From the NCBI GenBank assembly GCA_958430865.1, contig CAUDNR010001680.1, positions 32,357 through 96,356 on the forward strand: 64,000 nt of DNA. The letters run 5' to 3'. The position numbers and the translations under genes are program-made. Within the stretch, counting starts at the first letter, position 1. Each line of letters starts with the position of its first letter. Shown in pieces: positions 50,614 through 58,748 of this stretch. The DNA is from Entrophospora sp. SA101. Its lineage: Eukaryota; Glomeromycota; Glomeromycetes; Entrophosporales; Entrophosporaceae. The notes under the pieces were generated by a model. The model had not been told where the DNA came from and made no database searches. It saw only the letters and a list, made by a program, of their open reading frames with translations.

Positions 50614-51854
50614 AATAATAAAAGGAAAAAATGTCAATATTGGAAATGGATAAAGAAATTGTTGTTGTTTAACGTGTTAGGGTTGATATTATGGTAAAGT
50701 ATGACGGACGATTCAAATTTATTTTTTTTGAGAAGGAAATTTCTCATTCTTACAAACATTCATTTATTAAAATTAAATTGGTGTTCATTTCAGGATGGCT
50801 TGTAAACAAAATTTTTTATTAAAACAATGTTATTTTTCTTGTGTTGTTAAAAATGGTTTTACAAATACACCATTCATAGTGTGAACACTTTTTAGATTAT
50901 AATGATAGTTATATATGTATATATTATAAAATACTTTGTATTTTATAAACAAGTGAAAAATTTTTTGCAAATGAATTTTGAATTTAATAAAAATTAACGA
51001 ACAAATAAAATCAATTTAGTTTTCTTGATCTACAATATTGTTGTTTTGTGTATTTGTTTTTGCATAAAATTTATTGCTATTGCCTTTTTTTCCTTAATTA
51101 ATTTAAATTTGACGAATATAGGATATATATAGCAATACGGAAAAAAATTTGAGGATAATAATATAATAATAAAGTAATAATAATAATAATAATAGTAAAT
51201 ATTATTTGCGTATCAATTCCAAAAGTTGCATGATGTATTCAAGCATTTTTTTTGGAACTTTAAATTCCAAGACCATTCTTTGATTTTCAGTTATATCATA
51301 TCCTTCATTTTCATTCTATTCATCATTCAACGAAATCTTTTCTTTTCCTTTTCCGGTCTATAATACGCTATGGGATAATCATTCGACAATAGTAAAACAA
51401 AGGTATGCATACTAATTATATAGAAAAATTGATTTTCATAATAAAAAAAATTATTCACCAACTTCTGATTAAATTAATAGACGAGAGTCAAATTAATTTA
51501 CATGAATAAATATGGTAATGCAATGCACCTAATATTTGAGGCACCTATATATATGTTGACCGGGACTTGTTATTGACGAGTCATGAACTGAGAAAAGGAA
51601 AAGGATGAGGTTGGTAGTTAATAGGGACAACAACAGTTATTTATCTTTATTTTTTTTTTTTTTTTGCTAACTTGAAACATTCATTAACCTTGTATGTTTT
51701 TAGTCAAAATTAACAATTTATATTTAAAAAATATGGTGAAGTTAGTTGGAACTTTAAATTTGGTGGTGTAATTAGTAGCACTCTCCAAATTAGGTTATGT
51801 TACTTTATAACTCAATTGAAATATATGTGTGTTACGCAGTTATATACAACATAA

Positions 51855-52095
51855 TATGGCACGCCAACCATGACAAAAGTCTACATTATTTGACATTTAA
51901 AATGAGGGTGGCTTTATTTTAAATATTTTCATCCCTGTTTTAAATGATTTAAAATTTATTTAAAATGTAAAATTTTTTATTTTAAATGTCACAAATATTA
52001 CTTAAAATGGCGTCACATGAATTGGATCACTTTTTCAAAAAAAAATTACAAATTTAGCAATTAACATTTTAAACGAAAAACCTTTCATTTTAAAT
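51855..52095 (+). repeat. Left terminal inverted repeat of the 6.6-kb transposon
   Basis: Matches the reverse complement of 58205-58445, including AAAAGTCTACATTATTTG, AGGGTGGCTTTATTTTAAAT and GGATCACTTTTTCAAAAAAA. Confidence 0.9.
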
Positions 52096-52099
52096 GATA

Positions 52100-52480
52100 T
52101 TTTCTTTATTTACCTGTTTTACTTCATTCTAACTAAACATAGTTAGACGTTATTTTAAATAATAATTTATTTATTTTAAATAGTTAAATTATTATTTTAA
52201 ATAATTGCTAATTTATTTTAAATAGTTAAATTATTATTTTAAATAATTGTTAATTTATTTTAAAATACAAAGTGTTATTTTAAAATAACTGTTAATTTGT
52301 TTTAAAGTAGTTAAGTGTTTATTTTAAGTAATTAAATGTTATTTTAAATATTTTTTTTTCTTTTAAACATTTTTAAATTATTTAAAATGTTTAAATTTCA
52401 TTTAAAATGTTCCAATTCATTTAAAACATTCCAATTCATTTAAAATGTTTTGATTTCAAAATGTTTCGATTTTATGAAAA
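52100..52480. repeat. Subterminal TTTAAAT-rich repeats of the transposon
   Basis: Repeated units such as AGTTAAATTATTATTTTAAA, followed by TAATT, and later TTTAAAATGTTT words, next to the left TIR only. Such arrays are typical transposase-binding regions; that function is inferred. Confidence 0.7.
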
Positions 52481-52659
52481 TTTACATTACTTATTAATTA
52501 GGAAAATGAGTCAATTAATACCTTTATTAGGAAATGAAAGGAGGTAATTAAGGTTCACGGATAATCCAATATTTTTTTCCACGTTAAAAAAAAATAAAGT
52601 TTTTTTTTCGCGCTAAAAAAACAGTTTTTTTAAATTAATAAGTATTTTTAAAAAAGCAA

Positions 52660-55600
52660 ATGAGTAAACCAAGACGGTGTTATTATTTTTATCCTGATTC
52701 TAATAAACATTGTGAATGCAGAAAACTTAAAACTATTGAAGATGAAGAAACATGTAAAATATGCAATCATGATGAATCATGGCATGAACAGGTATTGTTT
52801 TGTAGTATTATGTCATTTTTTATTAAGTTGTTTCAGTGTCATATATTTACACATTAACATATGTATATTTTAAGTTATGTGAAAATGATCTCAATCATAC
52901 TCCACAAACACAAAAGGCGAATCAAATTGCTAACAATAAAGATATTGAGAATTTTTTAGTCACCACTCAAAATATTAGATCTAATCTCAAAATAAATCTT
53001 CAAAGTCAATTAATGAATAATAGTTCACAAAAATTACAAAAAAATAAAGAATATAAATTCACATTCTTTTTTTTACCAAAAAAAAATAATAATAAAATAC
53101 CAAAAGGAAAGAAGTAAGTACAATAAACTATGTACTGTCAATTGGTCAATTAATTACTTAAAATTAAAATTTTCAACTGCTAACTTTGCAAATTTTTTTT
53201 CTATATTAGTAGGGAATCTATGCATGCTGCTGGATTTGTGAAAGAAATTGGTTTTCGAAAAAAAGACAATGTGAATAACAAAATTATAGAAGCATTTCCA
53301 TTTAGTAAAGAATCAGGATATAATATTTACAAAGTAGTAAATAAAAAGGATCTGGTTTTATGTCACCCAGAAAAAAATATAGAACAACTAAAAAAGTAAG
53401 TTAAATGATATTTGATTTGATCTTAATTTGTTAATTTATAATAAATGTTTAATATTTTTTAAACATTATAAAAGGATTGCGACTGGTAGAAAATATATAT
53501 ATTTAGCACCAAAAAAACATGATCTAATATCAGAGGATTTATTTTCTGATGATAATGGTGATGAAAGTGTAAACAACAGTGAAGCTGATGAAGCTGATGA
53601 AGCCAATGTGCATGATGATGAAGTCAGACATATTGAAAATCCAACACAAAATAATAATTCAAGCATTTCTGTTATTCAAAAAAATCATACAACACTCTCC
53701 AACAACACTGTCAATAGTAAGGTTGCGGGAGAAACTCCTCCAGAAATCAATCGACAGAGTTTCGACAGGTTACACATTAATTGTTTATTAGAGTTTCGGC
53801 AGAGTTTCGCATTTGGGGTTTTCGCCAATCATCAGAGTTTCGACAGGTTACACATTAATTGTTCATTAGAGTTTCGACAGAGTTTCGACAGTCATTAAGA
53901 GGTTTCGCCCACAACCTTAGTCAATAGTTATCACTCCATCACAAATGATACATTATCCTCAATTAACTCCTCAACAAATTATCCTACATACTCGATTATT
54001 GACCACTCTAATAGTTCAAATGTTGATTACCCCTGTTCTACAAGATCTAATATTGGTTCAAATGATTATTCTACAAGAACAAACACTGTTATCAATATTG
54101 ATGATAATGATGATGATAATGAAAAAAATATCAATGAAGATCAAGGTATTGATTTATTGCTCCTTAATAATAAGAACTATATTATAATTTTTGTTAATGA
54201 TGAAAATTATTTTGAATGTCAAAATTAGGAGTTATTCTTCATAATGAGCTCAAAAAATATTATAATGCTGGAAAAAAAGAAACTAGGATTGAAATTGATA
54301 CTTATGATTTAATAAGTGAAACATTATTTCATTGGGCCTGTACTGCAACCAAGATAGATATTTTTCAAAATCCGTATTTCATTGTGCCATCAGAAGAGTA
54401 AGTTTTAAAATATTTAGTTTAATAATTTTATTTCATGATTTGTTTATACTCAACAAACTTGAATATATAGTCTAACCATTGTTTTAATGAAATTGCATTT
54501 AAAATTCATCGTTAATGAAACTAACATTTTTATGTAACAAAAATTTAAAAAATTCGAATTTAATGTTAATTAAATTTATTATTTATTTAAAAGTGTTATA
54601 GATACTGGTGGAGGTTTTAGGGATGCTACTCATAAATTATGGGAGGATTTAAGGAATAAAGGATTAAAGAACAATTCTTTAGAATTGATTGGAAATTACA
54701 TATTTTTGGCAGAAAATCAAACTTCAATTGGTGATAAATTTGGTTTTATTTTGGGGAAATTGTTAATTTGGTGCCTTTTGCATGGTGGTGCCTGGCCATC
54801 TTGGCTCCATCCTATGCATTTACATTATATTTGTGATAAGAATATTAATTATATTGAAATCTTTAAAGAATTAAATCCAAATATATACAATTGCATCAAA
54901 AAATTAGAATCAGGTGATAACTCACATTTTAAAGATGTTATTGATTATGCTAAACATTACAATGAGAATGTAAGTTAATTCATAATAAATCTTTCTAATT
55001 ATCCATTCCCATTAAGAACTCAAATATTTATTACACATATTTAGAGAATTTTTCAAATCAATCGGAAGGATATTGCAAACCATATTTCAAAATTTGTAAT
55101 ATTGGATAGTCGAAAAAATGTATTAGATGACCTGAAGAAAGGATTTAATTATTTTGATCAAATCCAGGTATTTAAGAATTTTAAATATAATTATTTTAAT
55201 TTTAATGATCTATATATTAATTAATTATATTTTTGATGTAGACATTGAGAAACATGAATTTTACAAAAATATTATCTGCTTTATATATTAAATTAGAAGG
55301 TAAAATGGTCTGGTGCCAATTTGATCATGTATATAATGAAAAAATCTTTAAAAACGAAAAGGCCAAAAGTGAATTATATACTTTGTTAAAAAATTGGGTT
55401 TTAAATCAAAATGAAACAACACTTGATAAATTTTTAAAGTTTATAACTGGTTGTAATCGTTTTCCTGTCAAAGAAAAAATCAAAGTAAATATTTTTCATT
55501 ATTTTATTGATTTAATATTAACCTCTATCAAACTAAATATCCTATATTGTTATAAAAAGGTCCACTGGAGGGTTAGTAATTCAAAAAAAATGTTAGGACG

Positions 55601-56210
55601 TATTCCAATGGCAAACACTTGTTCCTGTGTGTTGATTCTATGTGAAAATTTTGAATTATCCGAGGGTGATAAAAAAGCTTTTGAAGAAAGTTTGGTGATT
55701 GCATGTGAAAATAATGAAGGATTTTCAGAATCCAGCATAATAAAAATTAATTATGATTACCCAATTTTTCAAGGAATGAATCCATCAACACCTCAAAATC
55801 AAAACCATCAACCTTTATATACAAGCAATAATGATAATTTACAATCCAATTTTTCTCATCAACAACAACTACTTAATACATTTGACAATTCACAATCATC
55901 AGCTAATTCTAATTTATGTTTTCAACAATCATGCAATATCTTTGATAATCCACAATATAATGTGTCTCATCAACAATTTTTTCCAAATGTTAACTTAAAT
56001 TTTTCACAACAACCATCCAACAACTTTGTTGAACCACAGTTTAATGTTACTCAACCTTTAGATTACAACTCATTCTCTAGGCTCCAAAATTACAATACTT
56101 ACAGTTATAATCCTTTAAATCTAACTAATAACCGTCAATTCAATCAGTTTATTAATCAAACTTCAGACAATTTTAACAACAATAAAAAAAGAAAAAAGAA
56201 TAACAATTAA
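52660..56210 (+). CDS. Transposon-borne HECT-type E3 ubiquitin ligase-like protein (interrupted copy)
   Basis: Nine exons: 52660-52791, 52875-53113, 53210-53395, 53475-54145, 54229-54397, 54594-54969, 55045-55167, 55242-55484, 55560-56210. The N-terminus has a Cys/His module (CYYFYPDSNKHCECR, CKICNHDESWHE) likely to bind zinc. A HECT-like N-lobe follows, with FRDATHKLWEDL, then DKFGFILGKLLIWCLLHGG (the aromatic-rich 'FxxGkll' segment). The C-lobe has LDKFLKFITGCNRFP and then RIPMANTCSCVLILCENFEL, where TC marks the thioester Cys, about residue 664 of the uninterrupted protein. It ends with a long Asn/Gln-rich tail and KKRKK, a probable nuclear signal. Exon 4 is broken by a 202-bp MITE that adds an in-frame stop at about 53897. 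Without insert and duplication the model is about 859 residues. HECT ligases pass ubiquitin from E2 to substrate through that Cys; a role in transposition is not established. The last intron (75 nt) has no stop, so its removal is inferred from HECT spacing. Confidence 0.8.
53718..53919. mobile_element. 202-bp hAT-type MITE inside the HECT gene
   Basis: Ends TAAGGTTGCGGG and CCCACAACCTTA form an imperfect inverted repeat (TAAGGTTG / CAACCTTA perfect). The 8-bp GTCAATAG flanks both sides (53710-53717 and 53920-53927), the duplication length typical of hAT elements. Inside is a 78-bp direct repeat starting CAGAGTTTCGACAGGTTACA. Excision together with one duplication removes 210 nt and joins NNTVN to SYHSITND in one frame. 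Confidence 0.9.
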
Positions 56211-56442
56211 AATAAATTTATAAGATATGGTTGCTGCTATTTTTTAAAATTGGAAACTGTTTATTTTAAAATTACTATTTTTAGAGTGATAATTCTATTT
56301 TTTTTTTTATATATATATATATAAAAAAATATAAAGTTTAAAATATTTTTTTTCTGATTCATTTCATTAAAATTTTAGTTCAATGCAATAAATTTAGTTA
56401 ACCATTTAAGTCTTACAAATTTAAAATAAAATAAAATATAAA

Positions 56443-57900
56443 CTAAACATATCTTCTATTCAATATTTCTTTAACTTTAGCTATTACATCTAAATAAACA
56501 TTTATTCCATAATTATTATCTTCTCTATCTATACCCACTGAATTTAATAATTCATGATATTCATTTTGGTTTAAAACATTTCTAGGATCTTCAACAACCA
56601 CAGCAGCAGCATTATCATCTGAATTTGATGGTATAGGCCCTTCCCAGTCAATCCCATACAGTTCATTGACATTAAAATCTTCCATTCCTCTATATCCACA
56701 TTCAATCATTCCAGATGTAAATAATTGTAATGGAGTCTGAAAATGTTCAGTACGAATTGAATGATTATTCCACCCATCTACAAATAATTTAAGGCTTTTA
56801 TTAATACGATTCAAATAAGTTAAATGCAAACAAAATAAATACACATTATTATCAATATCTAATTCAAAATTTTCTTCTAAATATAGAAAAATAGTTTTAT
56901 ATATCTTTAAAACACATCGATTTATATCACCCCATAACCTTTCAATGCGTTGATTATGAACAGAGCGTCCTGCTATAAAACTACCACGTCCATACCCTCT
57001 ATATCTTTCCATAAATTGCTTTACTAAAGCATTTTCACCACCATGATCTGCCCTTACTCTACTTGGAATACCAAATTGTTCTATTCCTTTTTGAAATTGT
57101 GTTAAAACAGTAATGGATTTATTGTTACTACTGCAGTTACAAAAAGTGATCATTCGTGAATAACCATCTATTCCTGCATGCACAACAAATTTCCACCTAA
57201 TTAGCTTGTGATTTCCATCAATATGCCAAAGTGCATTTGGGCCAGCAACTTGATAAACACGCCTTGGAATTATATTGGACCATCTTTGTACCATTCCCCA
57301 AGCATCAACACGATTTAATGACTCACGTAGCCTTTGACGATGAACACGTATTCCTCTTGAACGTAATACACCTGCTATTATTATCTGTCCAGAAAATGGT
57401 TGTTCTCTTTGTATGTTTCTGATTTCGTTATCTAAATCATCATTTGATATATTAGTGTATGCTAAATCATCAGGCAAATTCAATTCAATTCTTCTTCTTA
57501 AAATTGTTCTATAAGAAACACCAAATATATCTGCAATTCGTATCCATGTATGTCCTTCTTGTCGCAATATTCTAATAATATTTTCATTAATCAATAGTTT
57601 TGGTCTTCCTCCATTTTCTTCTCTATATAAAAGAGGTTGTGATGCCTCATTTTGTAAAAGATTGATCCTAGACTCAATCATTTCTTTTAAATTTGATAAT
57701 TGAATTAATCTATGGTCCACATTATATTGCAAACCCAAATGGACATACATTGAATGCAAAGTTTCAATTTTTTCCAACTGTAATTCCAATGAATTTAAAT
57801 CTTCACCCTCATGGAGAATACGGGAAGCTATTCTAATTATTTCTTCAGCAAAATTTTCAAAATTTCTTTGTTGTTCATTCATTTTAATATTAATAGGCAA
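56443..57900 (-). CDS. DDE transposase with integrase (rve) core
   Basis: Catalyses excision and integration of the 6.6-kb element. Single 485-codon frame with no introns or stops, so possibly active. Residues about 1-95 are helical or coiled. Residues 99-140 form a helix-turn-helix (GRPKLLINENIIRILR, then GVSYRTILRRR). The RNase-H-like core has WHIDGNHKLIRW (Asp228), RVRADHGGEN (Asp285) and NQRIERLWGDI (Glu320), giving D-56-D-34-E spacing of a retroviral-integrase type. The motif string GIDGYSRM plus THNQRIERLW-like closing resembles the 'integrase core domain' proteins I know from fish and other animals, sometimes annotated beside HECT (G2E3-like) proteins. The first in-frame ATG is used; a second Met at residue 7 is equally possible. 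Confidence 0.92.
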   Translation of the reverse strand: MPINIKMNEQQRNFENFAEEIIRIASRILHEGEDLNSLELQLEKIETLHSMYVHLGLQYNVDHRLIQLSNLKEMIESRINLLQNEASQPLLYREENGGRPKLLINENIIRILRQEGHTWIRIADIFGVSYRTILRRRIELNLPDDLAYTNISNDDLDNEIRNIQREQPFSGQIIIAGVLRSRGIRVHRQRLRESLNRVDAWGMVQRWSNIIPRRVYQVAGPNALWHIDGNHKLIRWKFVVHAGIDGYSRMITFCNCSSNNKSITVLTQFQKGIEQFGIPSRVRADHGGENALVKQFMERYRGYGRGSFIAGRSVHNQRIERLWGDINRCVLKIYKTIFLYLEENFELDIDNNVYLFCLHLTYLNRINKSLKLFVDGWNNHSIRTEHFQTPLQLFTSGMIECGYRGMEDFNVNELYGIDWEGPIPSNSDDNAAAVVVEDPRNVLNQNEYHELLNSVGIDREDNNYGINVYLDVIAKVKEILNRRYV

Positions 57901-58204
57901 TAAAAAATAATTAAGGTGTAAAATTGTTTTAGTATAATGAAATATAGCTTAAATCACTGCAAAATTAAAATCTAGTTTTATTATGTTTGCAATATTTTTT
58001 AACTGGCTACAAAATTAAAAGACAATTCAACAACTTAATGATTCAATTAATATAACAAAGCAATTAATATGGAAAGATGTATTCTTTTATTGGGAAGTGC
58101 AATATCTGTAAAATAAGAAATATAATTTCTTTATTAATATTTTTTTTTCAATTAGAAATCGATTAATAAATTTGGAAAAATTCATGAATTTTTTTAGTAT
58201 TTCA

Positions 58205-58445
58205 ATTTAAAATGAAAGGTTTTTCGTTTAAAATGTTAATTGCTAAATTTGTAATGTTTTTTTGAAAAAGTGATCCAATTCATGTGACGCCATTTTAAGT
58301 AATATTTGTGACATTTAAGATAAAAAATTTTACATTTTAAATAAATTTTAAATCATTTAAAACAGGGATAAAAATATTTAAAATAAAGCCACCCTCATTT
58401 TAAATGTCAAATAATGTAGACTTTTGTCATGGTTGGCGCACCATA
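58205..58445 (-). repeat. Right terminal inverted repeat of the 6.6-kb transposon
   Basis: Inverted copy of 51855-52095, ending GGTTGGCGCACCATA just before the ACATAA duplication. Confidence 0.9.
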
Positions 58446-58748
58446 ACATAAGCCCTCCTTACTTCTAAAAATATATTTCGAAAATTAAATATTTCCTAAA
58501 CAAGATTTTTTCAACCCCCTTCGGTATATACAAGTTGGACAAGATTTCGTGAAAATATAAATACAATTAATTTTTAATTCGCAATAATTAATAAATAATT
58601 TTTTTCATTAAATTTTTTTAATTTTGTTAATGATATAAGGGAAAAAAATTATTTATTTTTACAAAAAAAAACAAACGCATATAATATACCATTGAACTTT
58701 ATTCGATTTTTATCTATTATTATTATTATTATTTTACCAAAGGACAAA

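What the first reader, a model, noticed from the sequence alone, without database searches (positions are those of the whole stretch)
51855..58445. Intact DNA transposon pairing a DDE integrase with a HECT ubiquitin-ligase gene
Seen: about 241-bp TIRs, a perfect ACATAA target duplication and two convergent genes. One gene has D228/D285/E320 integrase motifs; the other has a HECT C-lobe with a catalytic-type Cys. Known: HECT enzymes are normally host proteins, and few transposons carry ubiquitin ligases. Inference: the element may use ubiquitination to control host repair, transposase stability or silencing. The transposase type and 6-bp duplication suggest IS3EU, and a similar pairing may exist in animals (G2E3-like HECT near integrase-core proteins), which would mean a broadly conserved two-gene mobile system.
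Basis: partly seen in the sequence, partly recalled or inferred. Interest (0 to 1): 0.88.

Follow-up and report, generated by a model that had tools for sequence, protein, structure and literature searches.

The report
Fungal transposon carrying a ubiquitin-ligase gene
A cut-and-paste jumping gene in a mycorrhizal soil fungus carries, besides its transposase, a gene for a HECT-type ubiquitin ligase, and the same two-gene layout recurs in a distant sister family in the same genome, so the ligase looks like an old working part rather than a chance passenger.

Summary
The element is real: 51855-58445, 241-nt TIRs (5 mismatches), TATGG..CCATA ends, 6-bp duplication ACATAA. A 479-aa rva_4-type DDE transposase and a multi-exon HECT gene lie tail to tail. 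HECT is significant (E 2.1e-12) with a catalytic-type Cys. Protein names point to Entrophospora sp. SA101.

Main new result: a second family in the genome (transposase 45-49% identical) has a homologous HECT gene (29%) in the same convergent place, with matching introns and N-terminal CxC-x11-CxxCxH-x4-H motif. HECT lies beside 6 of 10 rva_4 matches, many of them duplicates. This speaks against a chance passenger. Ends, duplication and domain fit IS3EU as printed; Repbase was not searchable.

Corrections: this copy's HECT gene is interrupted by a 202-bp hAT-like MITE with an in-frame stop; complete ends of the second family were not found; the animal link was not supported (weak tests); function is inference. 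My reading: an IS3EU-type element with an inherited E3 ligase acting in trans, comparable to the alpha-kinase gene of published TET-bearing IS3EU elements. New variant of a known kind.

The parts
51849..51854 (.). left target-site duplication ACATAA
51855..52095 (+). left terminal inverted repeat, begins TATGG
51855..52500 (.). left end rich in ATTTTAAAT / ATTTAAAAT (9 and 6 copies against a mean of 0.38 each and at most 3 in 300 shuffles); possible transposase binding sites (inference)
52660..52791 (+). HECT gene exon 1 (predicted): C-x10-C-x-C-x11-C-x2-C-x-H-x4-H motif
52875..53113 (+). HECT gene exon 2 (predicted by GT-AG and frame)
53213..53395 (+). HECT gene exon 3 (predicted)
53475..54145 (+). 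HECT gene exon 4 (predicted), low-complexity linker, split by the MITE
53718..53919 (.). hAT-like MITE, GTCAATAG duplicated at 53710 and 53920, in-frame stop at 53896-53898
54229..54397 (+). HECT gene exon 5
54594..54969 (+). HECT gene exon 6, part of the HECT N-lobe
55045..55167 (+). HECT gene exon 7
55242..55484 (+). HECT gene exon 8
55560..56210 (+). HECT gene exon 9: C-lobe with catalytic-type Cys (55620-55622), then a Q/N-rich tail of about 160 aa ending KKRKKNNN
56446..57882 (-). transposase, 479 aa, HTH region (matches under the cut-offs) plus rva_4 core, D222 D279 E314
58205..58445 (-). right terminal inverted repeat, ends CCATA
58446..58451 (.). right target-site duplication ACATAA

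Best explanation
An IS3EU-type cut-and-paste DNA transposon of a glomeromycotan fungus whose inherited equipment is two genes: a DDE transposase and a HECT E3 ubiquitin ligase with an N-terminal zinc-binding-like module, convergent between long TIRs. Shown: TIRs, 6-bp duplication, both domains, and the same gene pair in two diverged families. Inferred: the transposase cuts and inserts the element at 6-bp staggered sites, and the ligase acts in trans, taking aim through its N-terminal module and passing ubiquitin through the C-lobe Cys to a host protein that limits the element (a silencing or repair factor) or to the transposase, so that the element persists. In this copy the transposase frame is open but the ligase gene is interrupted by a MITE, so this copy would depend on ligase made elsewhere or make a HECT-only product.
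For: Anatomy. A second 6-bp duplication (AATATC) flanks a 137-bp derivative with the same ends at C1972. Second family: HECT convergent with and 3' of the transposase at C2114 and two C1181 places, with remnants at C394 and C661. HECT 29% identical between the families yet with the TC Cys in both, five introns at matching places (four exact, one within three columns) and the same CxC-x11-CxxCxH-x4-H spacing. HECT beside 6 of 10 rva_4 matches. Host-annotated proteins P0121 and P0123 of the two families both pass Pfam's HECT cut-off, and P0121 has the same four splice junctions as my model. Published fungal IS3EU: TAYGG..CCRTA ends and 6-bp duplications in rusts, and an alpha-kinase gene oriented opposite to the transposase in all TET-bearing IS3EU families (passages).
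Against: No activity, expression or target is shown. This copy's ligase gene is interrupted, and two of the four family-B HECT places read have lost the Cys codon by a small deletion. The right end and target duplication of family B were not found, so family B is not shown as a complete TIR-bounded element. Many copies are duplicates (C124 differs from C2114 by 1 base in 3264), so the independent evidence is two families. A full-length transposase copy without HECT exists (C1). The genome search with the Pfam HECT profile listed HECT-A but not HECT-B. In family A the HECT domain is followed by a tail of about 160 aa, unusual for HECT enzymes (recalled). The AlphaFold model was unusable (mean pLDDT 35).
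Confidence: 0.6

Rival explanations
1. Chance passenger: a host HECT gene was captured once by an IS3EU element and is now decaying.
For: MITE in the HECT gene; Cys codon lost in two of four family-B places; one full-length transposase copy without HECT.
Against: Two families with transposases only 45-49% identical both have the pair in the same orientation, with matching introns and the same N-terminal motif, so the capture would be older than their split and kept since. Profile comparison with three host HECT domains aligns only the C-terminal part, with probability 51% and E 0.00015.
Confidence: 0.2
2. The HECT-fold protein is a non-catalytic, mainly DNA-binding partner of the transposase (like RAG2 for RAG1, recalled), with ligase activity secondary or lost.
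For: Conserved N-terminal C/H motif; basic C-terminal end and long tail after the HECT domain in family A.
Against: The TC Cys is kept in both families at 29% identity.
Confidence: 0.15
3. Two unrelated loci: a host HECT gene that happens to lie between two inverted repeats and a transposase.
For: Only the general caution that the assembly is duplicated around this locus.
Against: Perfect duplication outside TIRs that match at 98%, and the same gene pair in a second family whose left end sits at two different sites.
Confidence: 0.03

Closest known systems
[quoted passage not shown]
   Same: TA..TA termini, 6-bp duplications, integrase-like DDE transposase.
   Different: The terms HECT and ubiquitin do not occur in that paper's main text; Repbase entries could not be searched.
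TET-bearing IS3EU elements of fungi (PMC12730594, passages seen)
   Same: 6-bp duplications and TAYGG..CCRTA ends in the rust members, a second enzyme gene oriented opposite to the transposase.
   Different: There the second enzyme is an alpha-kinase, with a TET/JBP gene between; here it is a HECT ligase. The term HECT does not occur in that paper's main text.
HECT E3 ligases (E6AP and others)
   Same: Pfam HECT over parts of both lobes, catalytic-type TC motif.
   Different: Encoded inside a transposon, very divergent, N-terminal C/H motif, long Q/N-rich tail in family A.
RAG1/RAG2 transposon (recalled; only the start of one abstract seen)
   Same: A DDE transposase in a two-gene element; RAG1 bears a RING ubiquitin-ligase domain (recalled).
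   Different: Unrelated transposase; there the ligase is of another type and fused to the transposase.

Membership tests
IS3EU superfamily | TA..TA termini (rust members TAYGG..CCRTA) | tested here: met
   TATGG..CCATA; family-B left end TATGGCAAGCC
IS3EU superfamily | 6-bp target-site duplication | tested here: met
   ACATAA in the window; AATATC at C1972. For family B no right end or duplication was found
IS3EU superfamily | Integrase-like DDE transposase | tested here: met
   PF24764 E 1.6e-82; in 20 aligned sequences D222 and E314 are invariant and D279 is N in one
IS3EU superfamily | Transposase groups with Repbase IS3EU entries in a tree | not testable with these tools
   No Repbase sequences held
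HECT E3 ligase | Pfam HECT above the curated cut-off (23.9 bits) | tested here: met
   P0121 47.7 bits, family-B P0123 32.9 bits; window exon 32.2 bits
HECT E3 ligase | Catalytic Cys in the C-lobe | tested here: met
   Codon 55620-55622; aligned with the E6AP TC (E 0.12). Family B: kept at C2114 and C124, lost at two C1181 places
HECT E3 ligase | HECT domain at the extreme C-terminus (recalled) | tested here: not met
   Family A has a tail of about 160 aa; family B ends 15 aa after the conserved GF
HECT E3 ligase | Ubiquitin transfer | not testable with these tools
   needs biochemistry
G2E3-like animal HECT next to integrase-core genes | Same gene pair in animals | tested here: inconclusive
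   No animal protein among the HECT hits; three sponge-MAG contigs of 3.4-4.2 kb show no HECT, and a HECT search of that assembly was empty with no control ringing; no animal genomes searchable

The most novel reading that the evidence does not exclude
A distinct, old lineage of IS3EU elements in arbuscular mycorrhizal fungi is a two-gene system in which a self-encoded HECT ligase with a C/H finger is needed in trans for successful transposition or for escape from silencing; across fungi, IS3EU elements repeatedly pair the transposase with an oppositely oriented protein-modifying enzyme (HECT here, alpha-kinase in the published TET-bearing elements).
Probability: 0.35. Interest if true: 0.78.

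Novelty: new variant of a known kind. Interest (0 to 1): 0.62.

Why it matters
HECT ligases are ordinarily host enzymes (recalled). A transposon lineage that has kept one through the divergence of two families suggests that mobile DNA can manipulate ubiquitin signalling, and it gives a natural pair (transposase plus ligase) for testing what limits transposition in arbuscular mycorrhizal fungi. Together with the alpha-kinase gene of TET-bearing IS3EU elements (PMC12730594, passages) it hints at a rule: this superfamily recruits protein-modifying enzymes.

Tried and rejected
Structure prediction of P0121 alone gave mean pLDDT 35; no fold search was run on it. Profile comparison with three host HECT domains was weak (probability 51%, E 0.00015), so which host HECT type is closest stays open. 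Two viral-contig scans with the transposase matched 1 and 35 stretches by pattern, none a relative. The genome-contig scan gave 4 relatives among 53 pattern matches: three from a sponge-symbiont MAG, probably sponge DNA, and one weak archaeal-MAG locus that I did not follow. No long terminal inverted repeat showed in the two sponge-MAG contigs tested. A second letter-identical full copy at C130:117462-124052 was first taken for an independent insertion; it shares at least 1.49 kb of the window's right flank and has a repetitive, different left flank, so duplication or misassembly is not excluded and it is not counted as one. Paper searches that could have shown a HECT-carrying transposon: 0 papers; 1; 5; 2; 0; 726 matched, 15 listed; 3; 504 matched, 10 listed; none of the listed titles and abstract starts reports one. 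The one paper was looked into by passages and has no HECT gene in a transposon. The original GingerRoot paper was not among the four listed. Repbase and most subscription papers were not searchable.

Full report
Observation. The window 51855-58445 is bounded by inverted arms of 241 nt, 98% complementary, with five mismatches, flanked by perfect ACATAA copies at 51849-51854 and 58446-58451. Its ends read TATGG..CCATA. The minus-strand gene 57882-56446 is one open frame of 479 aa that matches Pfam rva_4 at E 1.6e-82 and rve at 2.1e-6, the latter under its cut-off. An alignment with 19 relatives puts the DDE triad at D222, D279 and E314; D279 is N in one relative. The plus-strand gene 52660-56210 is broken into exons; the seven introns listed are GT-AG and 74-196 nt long. 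Exon 55242-56210 alone matches Pfam HECT at E 1.1e-7 (the frame read there runs through one intron). The host's annotated protein P0121, which covers most of the HECT part and has the same four splice junctions as my model, matches at E 2.1e-12 over profile positions 38-280 of 306.

Not intact. A 202-nt insert (53718-53919) with TAAGGTTGYGGG inverted ends (2 matches in the window, none in 100 shuffles) and an 8-bp duplication GTCAATAG lies in the low-complexity linker of the HECT gene and brings an in-frame TAA at 53896-53898. It looks like a hAT-type MITE (type recalled from the 8-bp duplication). Its GT and AG ends, if used for splicing, would shift the frame (reasoned by hand from the sequence, not computed). 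A metagenome relative, P0122 (82% identical over the 15% of the query that is matched), reads through the same linker without it, so uninterrupted relatives exist.

Host. P0001, P0002, P0121 and P0123 are named as Entrophospora sp. SA101, and P0001's longest contig has the length of G000:C130, 135846.

Other copies. Searching the whole assembly with the left TIR gave 13 matches. C130:117462-124052 is letter-identical over 6591 nt and shares at least 1.49 kb of the window's right flank, but not its left flank, which is repetitive. C130:25806 to 48865 has the window's left flank (100%), a long N run, and the window's right flank (about 99%) around a decayed copy with the same ACATAA at its right end; it is probably the same insertion seen in another haplotype or duplicate. 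C1972:4048-4184 is a 137-bp derivative with the same ends and its own 6-bp duplication AATATC, a second insertion that supports the 6-bp rule. A terminus pattern, up to one mismatch, found these ends at 8 places against 1 for the reversed control.

The pairing. Searching the assembly with the transposase gave 15 matches and with the HECT part 15 matches. Beyond the window's family (A), a second family (B; transposase 45-49% identical) occurs at C2114, two places in C1181 and C1, with remnants (40%) in C394 and C661. HECT-B sequence lies convergent with and 3' of the transposase at C2114, both C1181 places, C394 and C661, and also at C124, where no transposase hit was listed. Of 10 rva_4 matches in the genome, six have HECT sequence on the opposite strand beside them: the window, C130:122305, C130:47042, C2114, C1181:55012 and C1181:22878. 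Four do not in the stretches read: C1 (full-length rva_4 domain; likeness to C2114 stops about 157 bp past the transposase match, no HECT in the next 4.4 kb or so), C1615 (truncated), C1526 and C1977 (shreds). Several of these places are duplicates: C124 differs from C2114 by one base in 3264, and C2114, C1181:54394 and C1 share their left flank, while C1181:22506 has its left end at another site. So the independent evidence is two families, not six cases.

HECT-A and HECT-B are 29% identical. Five introns lie at matching places, four exactly and one within three columns of the alignments; three are in phase 0, and the other two split a codon after its second base in both families as read from the upstream exon. 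A frame break inside one B exon prevents reading one of these from the downstream side as well. Family A has one further intron. The N-termini share C-x(9-10)-C-x-C-x11-C-x2-C-x-H-x4-H. The TC Cys is present in A, C2114 and C124 and deleted in the two C1181 places. One gene inherited with the transposase since before the two families split is the simplest reading. Limits: the right end and duplication of family B were not found, only a left end at two sites and short inverted subterminal repeats at 76-83% identity; and a genome search with the Pfam HECT profile gave 27 matches that include HECT-A at both full copies but not HECT-B, although the annotated HECT-B protein P0123 passes the Pfam cut-off.

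Mechanism. Shown: ends, duplication, domains, repeated pairing. Inferred: cut-and-paste movement by the DDE enzyme; binding of subterminal ATTTTAAAT/ATTTAAAAT motifs, enriched in the left 646 nt (9 and 6 copies against a mean of 0.38 each and a maximum of 3 in 300 shuffles) and less clearly in the right 563 nt (3 and 2 copies, shuffle means 0.23 and 0.27, maximum 2 for both); ubiquitin transfer by the HECT C-lobe to a host restraint or to the transposase. The basic end of the Q/N-rich tail suggests nuclear entry (inference).

Known context. IS3EU families have TA..TA ends and usually 6-bp duplications (PMC10045372, passages). TET-bearing rust IS3EU elements have 6-bp duplications and TAYGG..CCRTA ends, and all TET-bearing IS3EU families carry an alpha-kinase gene oriented opposite to the transposase (PMC12730594, passages). 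Neither main text contains the term HECT. No paper with both IS3EU and HECT was found, and two papers with IS3EU and ubiquitin were listed but not read. Repbase itself could not be searched, so a HECT-bearing entry there is possible.

Animals. The transposase has 1728 relatives at E <= 0.001, of which 120 are listed, including tardigrade, sponge, cnidarian and hemichordate proteins besides those of mycorrhizal fungi. The HECT part found two proteins by itself and six with the two-family profile, five of the six from Entrophospora; these searches reach only relatives that share exact short words. Three contigs from a sponge-symbiont MAG carry the transposase and show no HECT, but are 3.4-4.2 kb long; that assembly has five rva_4 matches on four contigs, of which I read three, and a HECT search of it was empty with no control ringing. 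The animal claim is therefore neither supported nor excluded.

Noticed in passing
window 53718-53919: hAT-like MITE (inverted TAAGGTTGYGGG ends, GTCAATAG duplication) inside the HECT gene; a similar-looking stretch lies beyond the HECT-B start at C2114.
   Followed up: partly
L012 1549-1685 (C1972:4048-4184): 137-bp non-autonomous derivative with the element's ends and its own 6-bp duplication AATATC.
   Followed up: yes
G000:C130:25806-48865 and 117462-124052: The window locus appears in part twice more on contig C130, with mixed flanks and a long N run: haplotype, duplication or misassembly.
   Followed up: partly
G000, pattern GGCTTGCCATA: The family-B terminus occurs 27 times in the assembly against 1 for the reversed control, so short derivatives may be spread about.
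   Followed up: no
G000:C1199 (7287, 27499, 48037, 75947) and C844, C1548, C1957: Equal-scoring copies of large HECT genes, four on one contig and three on others; TRIP12/Ufd4-like as judged by eye.
   Followed up: partly
L047, L048, L049 (LWTN01000118.1, LWTN01000139.1, LWTN01000127.1): Contigs filed under a Cycloclasticus MAG encode eukaryote-type rva_4 transposases, probably sponge host DNA.
   Followed up: partly
L050 860-1243: Weak match (30%) to the transposase in a Thermococci MAG contig.
   Followed up: no
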